Virus record (IMG/VR): IMGVR_UViG_3300042731_005056
Location: 1-47,124 of that record
DNA from: a virus
DNA: 47,124 bases
Direction: 5' to 3' (one strand)
Shown here in pieces: positions 8,004 to 41,300 of the stretch. The notes under the pieces were generated by a model that saw only the letters and a list, made by a program, of their open reading frames with translations, was not told where the DNA came from and ran no database searches. Numbering within the stretch: position 1 is the first letter of the stretch; every line of letters begins with the position of its first letter. The position numbers were made by a program, and so were the translations under genes.

Positions 8004-9275
8004 TCAATCCCGTACCGCTGCGCGCATCTCAGCTTCGAGATCATCGACCTCTGTAGCATCTGACGCAGCTGCTTTCTTCGCACCTAACGACTTGGACTTG
8101 GCCACTCCGGACTTGCCCAACTTCTTTTTGCCATTGCCACTGGGGAGCTTAGTGCCTTTGGCTCTGGCAGCTTTAGAAGCCTTGGCAGCCTTCGCAGGAG
8201 CTTTTGATGCCTTGGCTTTCTTCTTTGCTGCAGGTGGAGGGTCTTCCTCTTCTTCCTCTTCCTCGTCCTCTTCTTCCTCGTCCTCTTCTTCCTCTTCCTC
8301 TTCTTCCTCGTCCTCTTCTTCCTCGTCCTCTTCTTCCTCGTCCTCTTCTTCCTCGTCAGGATCAGAATCGTCCTCTTCTTCCTCCTCTTCTTCCTCCTCC
8401 TCTTCCTCCTCCTCTTCCTCCTCCTCTTCCTCCTCCTCTTCCTCAACGCTCTCTGGCAATCCACCAGACGACCCCTGAGCCTCAGCAAGTTGCTTGGCTT
8501 CGTCTGGGTCTACTCCCTCCAAAATAGCCTGCATCTCGATAGGTGTTCGAGCAGGCATCAACCCATCCAAGTCATGCAACAAAGAATTCTCATCTGTGCT
8601 GAGAGGTTCACACTGTGCTTCCTTGATCGGAGCCTTACCAATCTTTCCCGTTGGGCGAACACGATAGTCAGTTTTGATCCCTTGACCTTCGCGAGTAATA
8701 GCGATGTCCTGCCCCTCCATCACATCAGTCATGTCCAGCTCATCGTTGAAAATGTCGAGAAGCTGCTTCCAAACTTTCGGCCCGTACGAATAGATCTGGA
8801 TCTTGGGGTCACCAACTTTGGGCAGTGTCTCCAAACCCTGAGCCTGCATCTCTGCCACATCGTTTGCCGTCCACTTCGGATCAGAGATGTCAATAATGTT
8901 GGAAAAGAACCGCTGCTTTGGCTGCAGCTGCTTGGCCATTTCCTTGTCCGCCGGATCAGAGGACCCCTTGAACTTGGCATGCTCATCACACACTGGACAG
9001 GGATCACTCTTCTTCCCAGGAGGCGTGTACCTGGGACACGTCAGATGAGCCTGGTTATTGTCATCAGGACCAATGGACCAGTGAATCCACATCTCGCGCC
9101 AAAACTGATGATGGTTGGGTCCCTCTTCCTGCCATGGGGGCAGAATTCGGATACGGTTCTTTCCTGTACGGGGCTTCCAATACAGTCGAGCAGCTGACTT
9201 GCCCCAGGCCGCCGCTCGGGCGGCCTCCTCAGCAGCTCTTTTCGCCACCTTTTTGCGATCAACCTTTGCGGGCAT
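8004..9275 (-). CDS. ssb: gp32-like single-stranded DNA-binding protein with giant acidic linker
   Basis: The start is the ATG at 9275 behind GGAGGA; the frame is open upstream but reads as non-coding there. The 423-residue protein begins with a basic helix and then has an OB-like core: RLYWKPRTGKNRIRILPPW near 28-46 and a zinc site (CPRYTPP, then CPVCDEH, near 75-95) as in T4-type gp32. After residue 265 comes an almost pure Glu/Asp run of roughly 70 residues, then a Lys/Ala-rich histone-H1-like tail. gp32 proteins normally end in a short acidic tail, so this arrangement is unusual. It coats single strands and recruits replication partners. Confidence 0.85.
   Translation of the reverse strand: MPAKVDRKKVAKRAAEEAARAAAWGKSAARLYWKPRTGKNRIRILPPWQEEGPNHHQFWREMWIHWSIGPDDNNQAHLTCPRYTPPGKKSDPCPVCDEHAKFKGSSDPADKEMAKQLQPKQRFFSNIIDISDPKWTANDVAEMQAQGLETLPKVGDPKIQIYSYGPKVWKQLLDIFNDELDMTDVMEGQDIAITREGQGIKTDYRVRPTGKIGKAPIKEAQCEPLSTDENSLLHDLDGLMPARTPIEMQAILEGVDPDEAKQLAEAQGSSGGLPESVEEEEEEEEEEEEEEEEEEEEEEEEDDSDPDEEEEDEEEEDEEEEDEEEEEEEEEDEEEEDEEEEEEEDPPPAAKKKAKASKAPAKAAKASKAARAKGTKLPSGNGKKKLGKSGVAKSKSLGAKKAAASDATEVDDLEAEMRAAVRD
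8239..8444. repeat. low-complexity GAGGAA/GAAGAGGAC tract inside SSB gene
   Basis: About 206 bp consist almost only of GAG, GAA and GAC codons on the minus strand (CTTCCTC repeats on the plus strand), encoding the acidic linker of the SSB. Sub-repeats such as CCTCGTCCTCTTCTT recur every 12-15 nt. The tract is prone to slippage, so its length may differ between isolates or assemblies. On the plus strand it produces a misleading poly-Ser open frame. Confidence 0.9.
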
Positions 9276-11983: not shown

Positions 11984-12238
11984 CTATCGTTTCGACTTTG
12001 CGATAATCCTCTCTACATTTCGTTTGGCTGTCCGCTGGGTGTGCTCCAAGCTTCGTTGTTTGAGCACTTCACTTCGGACAGCTGGGTCATGGCATCGCGT
12101 AGCCACTCCTCCAAGACAACGCTGCACGTTCTTGGAAGAGCACTTAGGGCACCCAACTGGATGCTGGTCACTCGAATCTAGCCAGACTTCCCAGCAGTTT
12201 CCACACAGCAAGCATTCATAGTCAACGACAAAGGGCAT
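11984..12238 (-). CDS. FmdB-like zinc-ribbon protein
   Basis: The 84-residue protein starts MPFVVDYECLLCGNCWEVW and has a second pair in VGCPKCSSKNVQRCLGG, the layout of small FmdB-type putative regulatory proteins (CxxC, about 17 residues, CPxC). The remaining 35 residues are basic and helical (VLKQRSLEHTQRTAKRN), which could contact nucleic acid. It lies immediately upstream of the polymerase gene with 9 nt between. A role in regulating or assisting the polymerase is possible only from location. Confidence 0.75.
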   Translation of the reverse strand: MPFVVDYECLLCGNCWEVWLDSSDQHPVGCPKCSSKNVQRCLGGVATRCHDPAVRSEVLKQRSLEHTQRTAKRNVERIIAKSKR

Positions 12239-12253
12239 GGCTCATAACCTCTC

Positions 12254-12481
12254 TTAACTAGGTTTGGTTTCAGCCGGAGATGGAAGTGCAGACAAAGAAG
12301 GCAAACGCAGCTCGGGGTGTTTCTCTCGGAACGAATCCCAAACCAACGCCAACCCCGTGCGACCCCCACGGTCATACCCAGCTTCTAACTGCTGCACGCA
12401 CAAGCGCACGTATGATGCGTTACGATGAGGTTCAAACAGCTGGGCTATCGTAGCCGTAAACTCATCGGAAAGGGGCATCAT
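12254..12481 (-). CDS. small hypothetical protein
   Basis: This 75-residue protein begins MMPLSDEFTATIAQLFEPHRN. It has a helical first 55 residues (YVRLCVQQLEAGYDRGG, LALVWDSFREKHPEL) and a Pro/Ser-rich end. Its ATG overlaps the upstream stop as ATGA, so it is translationally coupled to the Cys-rich gene before it. I do not recognise it. It is one of several small genes that lead into the polymerase operon. Confidence 0.65.
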   Translation of the reverse strand: MMPLSDEFTATIAQLFEPHRNASYVRLCVQQLEAGYDRGGRTGLALVWDSFREKHPELRLPSLSALPSPAETKPS

Positions 12482-15502: not shown

Positions 15503-17371
15503 CTAAGCTACCTTCCTAGTCGTCAAGCGTTTCCCTTTGCGCAACATCACATCGAGCTGTTCCAACATGACTTTGGGCAGGTCTTCCACTGAGTTGATCT
15601 CAACACTGTTGGAGTAGTAGTCCTTCACATGCGGGCTACAAATCCCCACAGCAAACAGCTCCACGATACTTTCGAGCTGCTTCACCACCTCCTTGAGATA
15701 CCGCGTATGGTCTGACGTGCACCTGGTCACGTTGGGCTGCGGATACCCATCGTTGAACACGAACAGAATTTTACGGGTCTCAGGAAACTGAATCAGACGA
15801 GACGCAGCCAATCGCACCGACTCAGCATCGTACGTGTTGGCCATCGAATTTCGACTCATCTGAATGCAGCGATGCTTGACATGCCGCCAGTCCTCATCAA
15901 AGGACTTGTACACGCCAACCCACAAGTCCCCCCAACGCGAGAAGACCTCTCGCTCTTCCGGAGTTGCTCGGTTGTAGCGAGCCAGACCTGTATCGTAATC
16001 CCGAGTAGAGTACCCACAGATCTCAAACGGGATACCCAACTCGTGCAACACTTCCCCAAACAACATGGCTGCCTTCGCAGCCAAGTCCACTTTGTAGCCG
16101 TGCATGCTGCCAGAGTGATCCACCCACAAAGACGCCCGCGTGTTGAAGCTGGGAGCAACCACACGTTGGCGAAACACACGCTTGCTGGTACCAATGGGAA
16201 CACGAAACGCCGCACGGGGATCAATCTTACCGCGACGTTTACCTGACTCCCATCGGTCCTGCTTGCTGCTCAATAGATTCAAACGCATTCGCTTGAGCAG
16301 CACATTCACCATCGCCCGAGACTGCCGCAAGAAAGCAGCAGACTCTACCTTGTCACCACCCTCGATACGAACCAGCATGTCACCCTCAGTGGTGTAAATG
16401 AAATAGCGATCCTCCTGAGCAATGTCTTGCTTGCACGCATCTCGGATCATGTTCTGACGAGAACGCAGCTGCTCGTCTCTTCGCATCTCCTCATCGGTGG
16501 CATCCAACGCGTCGTCACCTTCATCAGGACCACCACCTGGCTGCTCATCCTCGTCATCCTCGTCACCGTCCCCCTCAGCTCCATCCGATTCCTCCTCATC
16601 CTCTTCCTCACCATCTGACTCGGCTTCGCTGTCCTCTTCTCCTTCTTCTCCGTCCTCTTCTTCTTCACCCTCACCAGATGCCCCCGACTCTTCGTCATCC
16701 TCTTGCTGCGGAGGCGTTAACGGAGGCTGTACATCCTCCTCTTCGTCTTCCTTCTCCTGTAGAACCTGCATCACAGTGGCTGCGTGGTCGATCACCTCCT
16801 GTGTATTGGAAAAGCCCTTGGACTGCTCAATGAGCCCCAGAACCTTCTGCAGCTTGGGCCATATCTCGGGCTCCTTTTTGAGGACGTCCTCAGTGAACCA
16901 ATGGCTCGGCCCAGAACACCCCAGAACAGCCATGCCCTGACACAGCCGTCCAAACGGCGATAGCTCAGACCACCGCTCCTTGAGTTGCTTCAATGCCCAA
17001 TCGCTGCAGCATGCCAAGTTGACCCCAGCTCCACGCCACAGCTTGCGCATCTCTGATTCAACACGCCCATCTTCCAACGCCTGGACGATGTTCCACTTTT
17101 TACGGTCATGTGACTCCAACGACTTCAGAGCATTGAAGTCGCTGAAGATCACATGAGCCACTTCATGATCGAGAAAACCCTGAATAGCGTTCAGGAACTC
17201 TTGCGATGCGTTATCGGGAATAACCGGCAAGTAGATCGTCCGGCCATCCGTCATGCACGCATCATGTTTGAAGATCACCTTGATCTTGTACTTCTCAGCC
17301 AGAATGCGCCCGAGCTTTTCGAGTGCACTCTCAAAGTACCTGATCTTGGATCGGCTCAAATACTGAGACAC
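15503..17371 (-). CDS. cobT: CobT-like VWA-domain protein with N-terminal HExxH motif
   Basis: The 622-residue protein has three parts. The N-terminal region carries HEVAH (residues 69-73) and, about 27 residues on, ALEDGRVE, spacing typical of a gluzincin-type metal site and of CobT-like proteins. A long Asp/Glu/Gly/Ser linker spans about 215-290. The C-terminal VWA domain has the MIDAS motif DHSGS within ASLWVDHSGSMHG near residue 415. CobT with CobS normally drives the CobN cobaltochelatase. Phages lack CobN but often keep this ATPase/VWA pair, where the target is unknown. It is encoded 13 nt after the CobS-like ATPase. Confidence 0.88.
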   Translation of the reverse strand: MSQYLSRSKIRYFESALEKLGRILAEKYKIKVIFKHDACMTDGRTIYLPVIPDNASQEFLNAIQGFLDHEVAHVIFSDFNALKSLESHDRKKWNIVQALEDGRVESEMRKLWRGAGVNLACCSDWALKQLKERWSELSPFGRLCQGMAVLGCSGPSHWFTEDVLKKEPEIWPKLQKVLGLIEQSKGFSNTQEVIDHAATVMQVLQEKEDEEEDVQPPLTPPQQEDDEESGASGEGEEEEDGEEGEEDSEAESDGEEEDEEESDGAEGDGDEDDEDEQPGGGPDEGDDALDATDEEMRRDEQLRSRQNMIRDACKQDIAQEDRYFIYTTEGDMLVRIEGGDKVESAAFLRQSRAMVNVLLKRMRLNLLSSKQDRWESGKRRGKIDPRAAFRVPIGTSKRVFRQRVVAPSFNTRASLWVDHSGSMHGYKVDLAAKAAMLFGEVLHELGIPFEICGYSTRDYDTGLARYNRATPEEREVFSRWGDLWVGVYKSFDEDWRHVKHRCIQMSRNSMANTYDAESVRLAASRLIQFPETRKILFVFNDGYPQPNVTRCTSDHTRYLKEVVKQLESIVELFAVGICSPHVKDYYSNSVEINSVEDLPKVMLEQLDVMLRKGKRLTTRKVA

Positions 17372-17384
17372 ACTTCACTCCAAT

Positions 17385-18671
17385 CTAGCTTCCGCTGATG
17401 TGCTCGAAAGCTCGCTGGACAATCCCCTCTGTTACCTGAGCATCCTCAGTGCTCATCCGGTTCAGAAAGCAGTAGCGAGCTGCCCTCATGGGATTTGCCA
17501 TCTTGAGGTACTTGTCGCACCAGTTGATCAAGTCACGAGGAGACAACGGCACAGAGATCTGCCCGTTGCTGTACCCATCGCGCACCTTGTTGATGGCCAG
17601 AATGAACGCATCCGCCTCAGAATCCTCCAAGTCGGGTGAGAACTTCTGGATCAACATTTGCTTCTCTTTCTCTGGCTCCAGGTACTTCATCCGAATGGTC
17701 AAGCCAAATCTGTTGATCTGGCTGTAGTTCTGGATGCGAGTGCCTTGGCTGTACAGCCCCGTGTCGTCACCCTGGCCAGCCGTGTTGGCTGTGGCGACGA
17801 TGAGGTTGTCATCGTGAAGGGGGATCAGCTCGCCGCCTGTCTCCGTCAGAAACAGCTTACCGTCCTCTTTCTGCAAAGGACGCTGAATGACGAAGCTAGT
17901 CTCTTCGCTGATCGTGTCCCACTCGTCCAAGATGATGACACATCCCGGCATGCGGAAAGCCAGAGGCAGCACGCCGTACTGGAACACCATCTCTTTGCCC
18001 TTGACGATCCACTCACCCACCAGGTCGTTACGAGTGATGCAACCGTCAAAACTGATCTTGACCACGCTGTAGTTCAGCCTGGCGCAGATCTGCTCGATGA
18101 TGGATGTCTTGCCTGTGCCTGTGTCGCCCACGAGTAGGATACGGTCCTTGCTCGCAAACCCCATGAGCAGCACCAACAACTCATCAGGTGGGAACACATA
18201 GCTCGGGTCTATTGCGGGCGTGAACTCGGTGGGCTCTGAAAAACCCTGGACCTGACGGTCCTTGATCTTAGGCTTCCCATTTTCGAGAGCCACCTCACCG
18301 TTGCTGTCTTCCTCGAACCCCAGGTCGACACCAAAAGTGTCACGCACCCAGAGCATCTTCTTCTTGCGGCGACTGCCCCCAACTGGAGACAAACGTTTCT
18401 CATACCGCTTCTCGTACTCGGCCCTGCCACGCTCCGAAAATACCGGAGCATCGGGGTGCATCTTGATGTAGTTCTCAACATCGAGTCCATGCTCGTCACG
18501 AAGATGCTTGACGAGGATGTGCCCTTCGTATCGGCAGGTCGCAACAGCGCACTTGACCTTGCCATCACTGCCTTTGTATTGGTCCAGGATCGTTTCGGTT
18601 GAATTCGCCGCCTGCTTTGTCTGCGCAGCCTTGGCCTTCGCCTTCACAGGCGTTCGCTTCGATGATGCCAC
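17385..18671 (-). CDS. cobS: CobS/MoxR-like AAA+ ATPase with zinc finger
   Basis: This 428-residue ATPase has Walker A GDTGTGKTS (182-190), Walker B CVIILDE (about 244-250) and a sensor 1 region IVATANTAG. A late RINRFG-like segment (SQINRFGLTIRM) is typical of MoxR/CobS proteins. The first 100 residues add a C2H2-type finger (C41, C46, H56, H61), followed by YIKMHPDAP as in MucR/Ros-like fingers seen in phage CobS homologues. It likely works as a hexameric remodeller with the VWA partner encoded next. It is the first gene of its operon, with promoter-like and repeat sequences just upstream. Confidence 0.92.
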   Translation of the reverse strand: MASSKRTPVKAKAKAAQTKQAANSTETILDQYKGSDGKVKCAVATCRYEGHILVKHLRDEHGLDVENYIKMHPDAPVFSERGRAEYEKRYEKRLSPVGGSRRKKKMLWVRDTFGVDLGFEEDSNGEVALENGKPKIKDRQVQGFSEPTEFTPAIDPSYVFPPDELLVLLMGFASKDRILLVGDTGTGKTSIIEQICARLNYSVVKISFDGCITRNDLVGEWIVKGKEMVFQYGVLPLAFRMPGCVIILDEWDTISEETSFVIQRPLQKEDGKLFLTETGGELIPLHDDNLIVATANTAGQGDDTGLYSQGTRIQNYSQINRFGLTIRMKYLEPEKEKQMLIQKFSPDLEDSEADAFILAINKVRDGYSNGQISVPLSPRDLINWCDKYLKMANPMRAARYCFLNRMSTEDAQVTEGIVQRAFEHISGS

Positions 18672-38665: not shown

Positions 38666-38902
38666 CTATCTTCTTGTCCTCGTTAGCAAACGAAACAACG
38701 TGCGCCTCCACCCAATTGCCCAAACAGCTCTGTAGTGCCCAAAGCCGCATTCGGGACAAGCTCGCTGTTCACCTACGAAGACACGTTCGCAGCGTGCACA
38801 AACTCGGAGTGCTCGTGACCACCATTTACTGATCTTCTCATGGATCAGATATCCAATAACAAACGCAAGCAGAACAAACACCCAAAGGCACACTTCAGTC
38901 AT
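38666..38902 (-). CDS. single-helix membrane protein with zinc ribbon
   Basis: ATG at 38902 follows GAGATCGG. The 78-residue product has one membrane helix (VCLWVFVLLAFVIGYLIH, residues 4-21), a basic turn, then a ribbon CARCERVFVGEQRACPECGF and a basic end (RRTLFRLLTRTRR). The ribbon would lie in the cytoplasm under the positive-inside rule. An ATG 12 codons upstream is possible. It is separated from the next gene by the pentamer array. Function is unknown. Confidence 0.65.
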   Translation of the reverse strand: MTEVCLWVFVLLAFVIGYLIHEKISKWWSRALRVCARCERVFVGEQRACPECGFGHYRAVWAIGWRRTLFRLLTRTRR

Positions 38903-38958
38903 TTTTCCGATCTCGGTTTTGTTTGGAACTAACAGCATGTCCAAACCCTTGGATTGGT

Positions 38959-39158
38959 GCGCAATGCTACACAGCGCATCACTTCGCTTCGCTCTGCTAG
39001 GCAACGCTGCGCGTCACTAAGCATAGCCCGACAGCGCATCACCCGGCTCGGCCCGGCTACACAGCGCTATACATCGCCCGACCTGGCACGGCCTAGCTTC
39101 GCTCGGCATAGCTTTGCAATGCAGTGCTCTGCTCGGCTCGGCATAGCTCTGCATCGCT
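38959..39158. repeat. degenerate pentanucleotide array, 40 in-phase units
   Basis: Exactly 40 consecutive 5-mers of the form NNRCN fill the whole gap between two genes. Position 4 is C in all 40 units, position 3 is always A or G, and position 5 is mostly T or A (GCGCA ATGCT ACACA...). There is no indel in 200 bp. The period is not three, so it is not coding. It ends at the stop codon of the gene at 39157. Two units equal about one helical turn, so C-R steps recur on one DNA face. Confidence 0.9.
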
Positions 39159-39723
39159 ACGAGATCTTCCATTTGTTAACTACAAATCTTCCAAATGGAC
39201 CTTTCCGATCAGGTCTAAAATCTCCGAGTCCAATTCGTTTTCCAGCAGCATCCACGATCTGCCGCAGAAGTTCTTTGGTCATAAGCTCTGTGTCTATCTC
39301 AAGTGAGAACACAAGCTCCCAGTCATGAAAACACGGACGATGGCACAAGATACGTCCGCCAGTTGCTGGGATGCGCACAGGACGTGTATCAACTCCCCAG
39401 CTATCTTTAGACTTCAAAGGGATACAAAGTTCTTGGATCCACACACATGCTGGAATGAGGGAAGATTTTTGCGTTGTTACCTTTGCCCTTCCTGCTTTGA
39501 AAAACTTCCCAGCTTCAGTGATGCAAGACATGAGATTAGGACCGGGTATGATCAGCTTTCCACTTTCGTCCTTGTACAGCTTTTTCTCAGCTTGCTCCTT
39601 TGGCGATCCTTGTTGCCCAACTCCTGCTGGTCTAGATCCAGAAGTAGCCACCATTTGAGCTTCGTCTGTGAACCTGTTGCATAGTAACGGACTAACTCCC
39701 TGAATTGTGACATTCGCAAACAT
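39157..39723 (-). CDS. conserved protein of unknown function with GLGDFRP motif
   Basis: ATG at 39723 follows AAGGGAG. The 188-residue protein begins MFANVTIQGVSPLLCNRF and continues with EKKLYKDESGKLIIPGPNL, an AGKFFKAGRAKVTTQKSSL block, DTRPVRIPATGGR, and a conserved end AGKRIGLGDFRPDRKGPFG. I have seen this set of motifs in phage and bacterial proteins of unknown function. The Gly-rich end recalls RAMP-type folds, but I cannot prove the link. A nucleic-acid role is possible. The pentamer array begins directly after its stop. Confidence 0.72.
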   Translation of the reverse strand: MFANVTIQGVSPLLCNRFTDEAQMVATSGSRPAGVGQQGSPKEQAEKKLYKDESGKLIIPGPNLMSCITEAGKFFKAGRAKVTTQKSSLIPACVWIQELCIPLKSKDSWGVDTRPVRIPATGGRILCHRPCFHDWELVFSLEIDTELMTKELLRQIVDAAGKRIGLGDFRPDRKGPFGRFVVNKWKIS

Positions 39724-39797: not shown

Positions 39798-41300
39798 CTA
39801 CTTTCCTATTTCGATCTTGAAACACTCCTCAGCACGATAGTCGTGCAACCGCTTCATCGAATGTCGAGTGAGGTACGGATGTGTAAAATCTGCTGTGTCG
39901 ATGACTGTTAGGTGATCAACGTTACCTCCTTTTCGCAATCCACGTCCAACGCGCTGCAGTGTCCGAATGGAAGACTTGCCTCCTCCAGCCAAGACCAGCG
40001 CGTCGATGTTTGGGATGTCCACACCTTCATCCAGGATGGACGTAGCAATGATCACTTTCAGCTCCCCTTTGCGAAAGTCATCAAGTGCTTTCTGACGAAC
40101 CTCTGAAGTCTCTTGACCGTTGATGAACTGGTGAGGGATGAAACCTTGCTGGGGGGATTGCCACAACTTCGCATCGAGAATCTCACCGTGTTTGATCTCC
40201 TTGACCAACATCAACACAGAGAGACCTTGGTTCACCAATTCAGCGGTCAACAGACACAGTTTGGTGTTCCGCCACGTGTTTTCAACGATGCCTAGCTGAT
40301 AGACTTCTTGCCACTTGGTTCGTTTGGCAATCACAGGTTTGGTGATCTTGTGAACCTGTATGGTGGGCTGAACACTGATCCCGCGATCAATGAGTTCCTT
40401 GTTGCGCACCGTGTGAGCCACGGGTCCGGTCACCCCGATGAGTCTGAGATCGGCTCCGTCGCTGCGTTTGAGCGGTGTTCCACTGAGCCCAAAACGGTAA
40501 TAGGCATCACAGAAACGCATGACCTGGTACCAGGAGTCACTGGCGACGTGATGACATTCGTCAGCAAAAACCACCTTCACGCTCTTGAGGAAGTTGCGAC
40601 ACTCATCCTTGCCGATCCGAGCGTACAACGTGTCCACTGTGGCCACGGTGACCCACCGTCCTGGGTTCCAGGCGCCGTCACCCACGACCCCCACATCCCG
40701 CGAGTCGTTGGGCTGCAACCCCAGGTAGGCCCGAAACATCTTGGAGGTCTGCCGCAGCAGCTCCAAGTTCGGGACCATGAACAACGTTGGCAGACGCAAC
40801 ATCTTGATAACTAAGGCAGAAATGACAGTCTTGCCCCCGTTAGTGGCTACAGCGGCTACTCCGCGACGAGCTGCGACCAGCGCTTGGGCACACTCGGGCT
40901 GGTAGTCAAACGGGTAGTCGAACCGGACTCCCTGCAGAGACAGCCCTGAGACTGGCTGTGGCTGCCCAGGACAGTTCCTCTGGTCATCAACCTGCACCTG
41001 GACCTGCTCTTTGCGCAGCGCCTTGAGGACGATTTGGGTGAGCCCTGCAGGGAAGGTGCGGGTGACCTGCTTGAACAGCTTGATTCGCCCATCCCACTGC
41101 TTGGACCTGTACTGTGCCGTGAACCGGTAGCCCGGCTGCAGGTAAGATGTGGCATCCAGGATGGGTTGAACCGGAAAGGTGCCCTCGATTTTGGCGTCCG
41201 TCCCCTGGATCACGATGGTGCAGCTGTACTGCTTGCCAATGGCCTTGGTTGCCCGCGCCTTGGATTGCTGGTGAAGCTTCGTGTAGTTCAATCGGCTCAC
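39798..41300 (-). CDS. uvsW: UvsW-like SF2 helicase
   Basis: This 500-residue helicase has an N-terminal domain (to about 125). Then come the SF2 motifs: AVATNGGKT (Walker A, 152-158), VFADECHH (DECH box, 247-250), LSGTPLKR (motif III, about 272) and, in the second RecA lobe, IIATSILDEGVDIP and TLQRVGRGLRKGG (motif VI). T4 UvsW unwinds R-loops and branched recombination intermediates and switches replication mode, and this protein should do the same. It begins at a GTG (41300) that overlaps the upstream stop, with GGGAG 8 nt before it. Confidence 0.9.
   Translation of the reverse strand: MSRLNYTKLHQQSKARATKAIGKQYSCTIVIQGTDAKIEGTFPVQPILDATSYLQPGYRFTAQYRSKQWDGRIKLFKQVTRTFPAGLTQIVLKALRKEQVQVQVDDQRNCPGQPQPVSGLSLQGVRFDYPFDYQPECAQALVAARRGVAAVATNGGKTVISALVIKMLRLPTLFMVPNLELLRQTSKMFRAYLGLQPNDSRDVGVVGDGAWNPGRWVTVATVDTLYARIGKDECRNFLKSVKVVFADECHHVASDSWYQVMRFCDAYYRFGLSGTPLKRSDGADLRLIGVTGPVAHTVRNKELIDRGISVQPTIQVHKITKPVIAKRTKWQEVYQLGIVENTWRNTKLCLLTAELVNQGLSVLMLVKEIKHGEILDAKLWQSPQQGFIPHQFINGQETSEVRQKALDDFRKGELKVIIATSILDEGVDIPNIDALVLAGGGKSSIRTLQRVGRGLRKGGNVDHLTVIDTADFTHPYLTRHSMKRLHDYRAEECFKIEIGK

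What the first reader, a model, noticed from the sequence alone, without database searches (positions are those of the whole stretch)
38959..39158. Intergenic array of 40 perfect-phase degenerate pentamers (NNRCN)
The 200 bp between two genes are made only of 5-mers with C at position 4 and a purine at position 3, 40 in a row with no phase slip, while the other bases vary freely. Ordinary slippage gives identical units; here only a skeleton is kept, which suggests selection for a helical-phase DNA signal (two units per turn) or for a periodic protein filament. It could be a packaging, segregation or recombination site.
Basis: seen in the sequence. Interest (0 to 1): 0.85.

Follow-up and report, generated by a model that had tools for sequence, protein, structure and literature searches.

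The report
Phage guide-RNA array (VIPR system)
The odd 200-base stretch is very probably the guide RNA of a recently described phage weapon called VIPR, in which a small CRISPR-like protein reads two variable letters in every five to find and silence genes of competing phages; this copy is unusually long.

Summary
In detail: 40 uninterrupted pentamers lie at window 38961-39160. On the coding (-) strand each unit is N-N-D-G-Y (G 40/40; Y = C32/T8; D = A18/T15/G6/C1). The tract begins at the stop codon of the gene upstream (39157-39723, -). That gene encodes a RAMP/Cas7-like protein: AlphaFold2 pLDDT 92.5, best Foldseek hits Csm3-type Cas7, sequence match to PDB 36pp 'SUSP1 Vipr protein' (E 1.4e-10). 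This is a VIPR locus (preprint PMC13142463): a Vipr protein plus vrRNAs made of GGY/NN pentamers that read DNA with one skipped base per unit. Independent support: a pattern-only scan of IMG/VR gave 120 array loci, of which 84 encode a Vipr homologue, against 0 of 75 control loci. Phage SUSP1 itself shows the four arrays the preprint reports. Four vrRNAs of the window's relatives match other phages' genes under the 1-nt-skip rule (9-11 units), with the skipped base at codon position 3. No target was found for the window's own tract. It departs from described guides in length (40 units against 9-16) and in having the first G of GGY mostly replaced by A/T. Packaging, segregation and DNA-curvature readings are not supported; periodic protein binding is close to right.

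The parts
38961..39160 (-). vrRNA variable tract: 40 contiguous NNDGY pentamers (NN = predicted target-reading letters, GY = invariant skeleton)
   Evidence: same kind of array beside the homologous gene in relatives
38939..38960 (-). putative 3' tail of the vrRNA, GCACCAATCCAAGGGTTTGGAC; the motif A(A/T)TCCAAGG recurs directly after arrays of relatives (L010 AATCCA, L011/L012 ATTCCAAGG, L013 AATCCAGGG, L016 AATCCAAGG, L017 AGTCCAAGG)
   Evidence: tail structure not established
39157..39723 (-). vipr gene (188 aa, ATG with AGAAGGGAG upstream); RAMP/Cas7-like; stop codon TAG overlaps the first array unit
   Evidence: phrog_4652 E 1.8e-20; PDB 36pp SUSP1 Vipr E 1.4e-10, profile 2.5e-37; AF2 pLDDT 92.5; Foldseek Csm3/Cas7, E 1.4e-7
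39798..41300 (-). UvsW-like SF2 helicase directly upstream of vipr; possible accessory gene, or simply a replication neighbour
   Evidence: ResIII, Helicase_C, UvsW_N; distantly related to the helicases that relatives' vrRNAs target; role inferred only
38666..38938 (-). next gene downstream (90 aa, weak zinc-ribbon match); probably a neighbour, not part of the system

Best explanation
The stretch encodes the variable tract of a VIPR guide RNA (vrRNA). It is transcribed from the - strand, most likely together with the vipr gene whose stop codon it overlaps, and is followed by a short conserved tail (inferred from sequence). Vipr protomers are expected to coat the RNA, one per pentamer, holding the invariant G-Y and presenting the two N bases of each unit. 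The string of dinucleotides then pairs with double-stranded DNA with one target base skipped per unit (NN-x-NN-x), so the skipped base falls on codon wobble positions of the target gene, and transcription of that gene in a competing phage or prophage is repressed. Shown here: tract, gene, homology, fold, linkage across many phages, tail motif, and decoding of relatives' guides. Taken from the preprint on SUSP1 and P. fulva: RNA binding, the skip rule, repression. Inferred for this phage: expression, processing and target.
For: Array exact. Neighbour gene is Vipr by sequence and RAMP by predicted fold. Array-to-Vipr linkage from a scan that used the array pattern alone: 84 of 120 loci against 0 of 75 control loci; among cellular-genome pattern hits the only two encoding the protein, L038 and L095, have degenerate arrays beside it. 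Positive control: phiSUSP1 shows one array upstream and three downstream of its vipr gene, 12-15 units each, as the preprint states, and includes D = A/T units. Skip-1 decoding of relatives: L016 to L143 and L015 to L151 (20/20 bases over 10 units each), L016 to L010 (11 units), L012 to L011 (19/20); 20/20 matches occurred only with skip 1, and 0 occurred in 1305 shuffled arrays. Skipped base at codon position 3 in the plausible gene each time. The targets include an SF2 helicase gene (L143, L151) and a DUF3799/PDDEXK gene (L010). Mechanism: PMC13142463.
Against: No target found for the window's own tract: six 8-unit skip-1 patterns in IMG/VR gave only matches whose extension is at chance; tblastn of the decoded 40-residue peptide against phages and plasmids gave nothing. 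The tract is 40 units long where the preprint reports 9-16, and the first G of GGY is kept in only 6 of 40 units. No expression data. The preprint's supplement (figs S17-S22) could not be read.
Confidence: 0.92

Rival explanations
1. A periodic double-stranded DNA signal (packaging, segregation, recombination or curvature site) bound by a filament-forming protein, two units per helical turn.
For: Exact 5-base phase over 200 bp.
Against: Skeleton is strand-specific (G invariant, next base C or T; GT in AT-rich phages), follows the coding strand of vipr, is linked to a RAMP gene, and the N letters decode to foreign genes in relatives.
Confidence: 0.03
2. A cis-regulatory RNA leader: the pentamers in the mRNA bind Vipr (as TRAP binds NAG repeats every 5 nt) to regulate translation of the adjacent genes, without guiding to DNA.
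For: Arrays sit just upstream of start codons and downstream of the vipr stop codon; TRAP also binds repeats at 5-nt spacing (my knowledge).
Against: Variable letters of relatives' arrays match other phages' genes at 9-11 units with a wobble skip; SUSP1 RNP binds and represses decoded dsDNA targets (PMC13142463). It could coexist with guide function.
Confidence: 0.04
3. Ordinary tandem repeat made by slippage and then decayed.
For: Most GCNNN pattern hits in cellular genomes are such repeats.
Against: Mutations are confined to fixed positions; G is 40/40; no unit-level autocorrelation in the window tract (p=0.21); tight linkage to vipr.
Confidence: 0.01

Closest known systems
VIPR (Viral Interference Programmable Repeat), Escherichia phage SUSP1 and Pseudomonas fulva prophage, PMC13142463; Vipr = PDB 36pp
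   Same: Phage-encoded small RAMP protein of the same family; adjacent strand-specific pentamer arrays with invariant G-Y and hypervariable NN; tail after the array; close relatives' guides obey the 1-nt-skip code.
   Different: One 40-unit tract instead of several 9-16 unit guides; first G of GGY mostly A/T (SUSP1 has only a minority of such units); different tail sequence; the vap gene is not identified (a UvsW-like helicase is the neighbour).
Class 1 CRISPR-Cas (Csm3/Cas7 backbones)
   Same: RAMP fold; RNA-guided oligomer (inferred here).
   Different: No CRISPR repeats or cas operon seen beside the gene; 5-nt unit with noncontiguous code rather than 6-nt period with continuous spacer.
TRAP (trp RNA-binding attenuation protein) and its (G/U)AG-N2 repeats
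   Same: RNA repeats at 5-nt spacing read by identical protomers.
   Different: Unrelated protein; TRAP repeats keep NAG, not GY, and serve attenuation in cis.

Membership tests
VIPR | Vipr protein (RAMP homologue of the 36pp family) encoded next to the arrays | tested here: met
   phmmer E 1.4e-10 and profile E 2.5e-37 to 36pp; AF2 model matches Csm3/Cas7; G-loop-like GLGDFRP..GPFGRF conserved
VIPR | tandem pentamers with invariant G-pyrimidine and hypervariable NN ('GGY/NN or a related consensus') | tested here: met
   40/40 GY units. The first G is kept in only 6/40, but D=A/T units also occur in SUSP1 itself and in the window's clade, so strict GGY is not defining
VIPR | tract length 9-16 units (descriptive range for two clades, not treated here as defining) | tested here: not met
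   40 units; other vipr loci have uninterrupted runs of 31-52 units (L143 52, L151 50, L168 34)
VIPR | invariable 3' tail after the repeat tract | tested here: inconclusive
   A(A/T)TCCAAGG motif shared with relatives; structure or pseudoknot not shown
VIPR | 1-nt-skip targeting of foreign DNA | tested here: inconclusive
   met for four vrRNAs of relatives; no target found for the window's own tract
VIPR | vrRNA expressed and bound by Vipr | not testable with these tools
   needs RNA sequencing and pull-down
VIPR | vap accessory gene | tested here: inconclusive
   SF2 helicase at 39798-41300; helicases are among predicted Vap enzymes in the preprint, but the assignment was not tested
Class 1 CRISPR-Cas | near-identical repeats with unique spacers and a cas operon | tested here: not met
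   Only array of this kind in the window is the pentamer tract; no cas operon match among the eight flanking genes scanned
Slippage microsatellite | near-identical units | tested here: not met
   12 different NN among 40 units with a fixed skeleton

The most novel reading that the evidence does not exclude
The 40-unit tract is one continuous guide: about 40 Vipr protomers on one RNA reading a ~120-bp gapped target (or a dense series of overlapping guides without separators), in a VIPR subtype whose skeleton is D-G-Y rather than G-G-Y. This would be a far longer and more specific address than any RNA-guided system I know of.
Probability: 0.25. Interest if true: 0.7.

Novelty: new member of a known kind. 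Interest (0 to 1): 0.55.

Why it matters
It ties an apparently inexplicable phage repeat to an RNA-guided system first described in 2026, and supports from independent metagenomic data two of that preprint's claims: vrRNAs are linked to Vipr, and they read genes with one skipped base at the wobble position. It adds natural predicted targets in uncultivated phages: a conserved SF2-helicase motif and a PDDEXK gene carried by other VIPR phages. It also shows that tract length (to 40 or more units) and the first skeleton base vary more than the preprint's main text describes, which bears on how Vipr holds its RNA.

Tried and rejected
BLAST of the array or region against INPHARED phages: no match. 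GCNNN pattern in cellular genomes: almost all are slippage repeats, rejected. RNA fold of the tract: not more stable than unit shuffles (z +0.94), so no hairpin explanation. Rfam: nothing in the window or eight array loci. Promoter/terminator scan: at chance. Target of the window tract: six exact 8-unit patterns plus tblastn, none beyond chance; the best (L294, 10 units) has stops in the NNx frame and the skip off the wobble position, and was preselected by the pattern, so rejected. D as a third coding letter: in relatives' decoded guides D equals the skip base in 2 of 8 units, no support. Dinucleotide composition: NN resembles codon positions 1-2 (r 0.50) but also reverse-complement positions 2-3 (r 0.45), weak evidence only.

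Full report
Observation. The tract is exactly as described: 40 pentamers in one phase. Read on the - strand, the coding strand of the flanking genes, each unit is NN-D-G-Y, at window 38961-39160. G is 40/40, Y is C32/T8, D is A18/T15/G6/C1. The first unit overlaps the TAG stop codon of the upstream gene. A second look for shorter arrays in the window found only this one.

From the array to a gene. Relatives of the upstream protein in IMG/VR (14 loci) nearly all carry several degenerate arrays of the same kind, 7-18 units, on the coding strand, often ending just before a start codon. To test whether the link is real I scanned IMG/VR with the array pattern alone (14 x GCNNN). Of 120 loci returned, 84 encode a homologue of that protein after one profile iteration, often within about 20 bases of an array. 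Of 75 loci fetched by unrelated patterns, none does, and none has an array of 8 or more degenerate units. In cellular genomes the same pattern mostly hits simple slippage repeats; the two loci that do carry the gene, L038 (Fibrobacteres MAG) and L095 (Alphaproteobacteria MAG), have degenerate arrays beside it.

What the protein is. All 64 aligned members match phrog_4652, of unknown function. The profile and the window protein alone match PDB 36pp, 'SUSP1 Vipr protein' (E 2.5e-37 and 1.4e-10). AlphaFold2 gives pLDDT 92.5, and Foldseek's top PDB matches are Csm3/Cas7 RAMP subunits (E 1.4e-7). W139 and G182 are invariant, and the glycine-rich GLGDFRP..GPFGRF stretch is nearly so.

The known system. 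The preprint PMC13142463 describes VIPR: a Vipr RAMP protein plus vrRNAs of 9-16 GGY/NN pentamers and a 3' tail. The NN dinucleotides pair with double-stranded DNA with one target base skipped per unit, mostly at codon wobble positions, repressing genes of competing phages. As a positive control I took phiSUSP1 from the phage collection: my scan shows one array upstream and three downstream of the vipr gene, 12-15 units each, matching the preprint's count. SUSP1 and wV8 arrays use GT where GC-rich phages use GC, so the skeleton is G-pyrimidine on one strand, which speaks for RNA. They also contain units in which the first G is A or T, so the window's D-G-Y is an extreme of an existing tolerance.

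Testing the code independently. I decoded 261 arrays against all sequence then held (5.7 Mb with both strands) under 0-3 nt skips, arrays masked. Ten-unit perfect matches (20/20) occurred only with a 1-nt skip; none occurred in 1305 shuffled arrays. One of the three was the window against L294, which had been preselected by pattern and is discounted. The others are L016 to L143 and L015 to L151; both hit the same helicase peptide, KYLCNVNVLTTGFDAP. The helicases are 64% identical to each other, and each lies downstream of a vipr gene in its own locus. L018/L019 carry the site too. L015's own helicase has LANANLLTIGFDAP there and matches its own guide at only 18 of 22, compatible with self-avoidance. 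Two weaker cases are L016 to L010 (a DUF3799/PDDEXK gene, 11 units) and L012 to L011 (19/20). In all four the skipped base falls at codon position 3 of the plausible gene.

The window's own tract. No target was found. Six exact 8-unit patterns in IMG/VR gave 93 contig stretches whose extension is at chance, and the decoded peptide found nothing in phages or plasmids. This is not evidence against function: the collection is a small sample and exact search tolerates no mismatch. The tract differs from described guides in length and skeleton. Other vipr loci have uninterrupted runs of 31-52 units, so length alone is not unique. Whether 40 units act as one guide or several is open. Its dinucleotides lack GG, CC, TG and TC entirely and are half palindromic, which I cannot explain.

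Mechanism and status. Shown here: tract, Vipr identity, fold, linkage, tail motif A(A/T)TCCAAGG, and decoding of relatives' guides. From the preprint: RNA binding, skip rule, repression, phage conflict. Inferred for this phage: expression, processing, target, and any role of the neighbouring UvsW-like helicase. Verdict: a new, unusually long member of the VIPR kind.

Noticed in passing
L020 4148-4950: Twelve or so vrRNA-like blocks of 8-16 units in a row upstream of vipr, each ending in AAGGATTTTAG: a guide array with a constant separator.
   Followed up: partly
L212, L214, L240 (CGC); L222 (GCG): Array loci whose constant triplet looks like CGC or GCG rather than GGY, with the base before GC almost never G. 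Strand not established.
   Followed up: partly
L143 8525-8554; L151 6093-6122; L018/L019 ~7102: Guides of L015 and L016 converge on one conserved SF2-helicase motif in other VIPR phages; L015's own helicase differs there.
   Followed up: yes
L264 2577-2871 (Pseudomonas phage LESphi2), L261 2641-2809 (phage DSL-LC04), L263 (wV8), L265 ~12165-12408 (phiHSIC): Isolate phages with vipr homologues annotated hypothetical (or HTH regulator) and flanking pentamer arrays; possible tractable models.
   Followed up: partly
L262 (Gordonia phage Trine): A phrog_4652-like gene (gene 41) with no array seen in the flanks inspected.
   Followed up: no
L095 1021-1563 and 3771-4346: Alphaproteobacteria MAG contig with two vipr-like genes and several arrays.
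   Followed up: no
L145 6900-7200: Arrays in a UViG named after an IMG genome id (2681812969) alternate with stretches that look tRNA-like by eye (GGAGTCGAACC); ARAGORN reports no tRNA.
   Followed up: partly
window 38961-39160: The tract's dinucleotides never include GG, CC, TG or TC, and 20 of 40 are palindromic (26% in relatives' arrays).
   Followed up: partly
window 15503-18671: CobT/CobS-like pair of genes (phrog_1576/17276 and phrog_249), annotated as porphyrin or cobalamin genes in other phages.
   Followed up: no
window 8242-8444: 13.5 copies of a 15-bp repeat TCTTCCTCGTCCTCT, probably inside a coding region.
   Followed up: no
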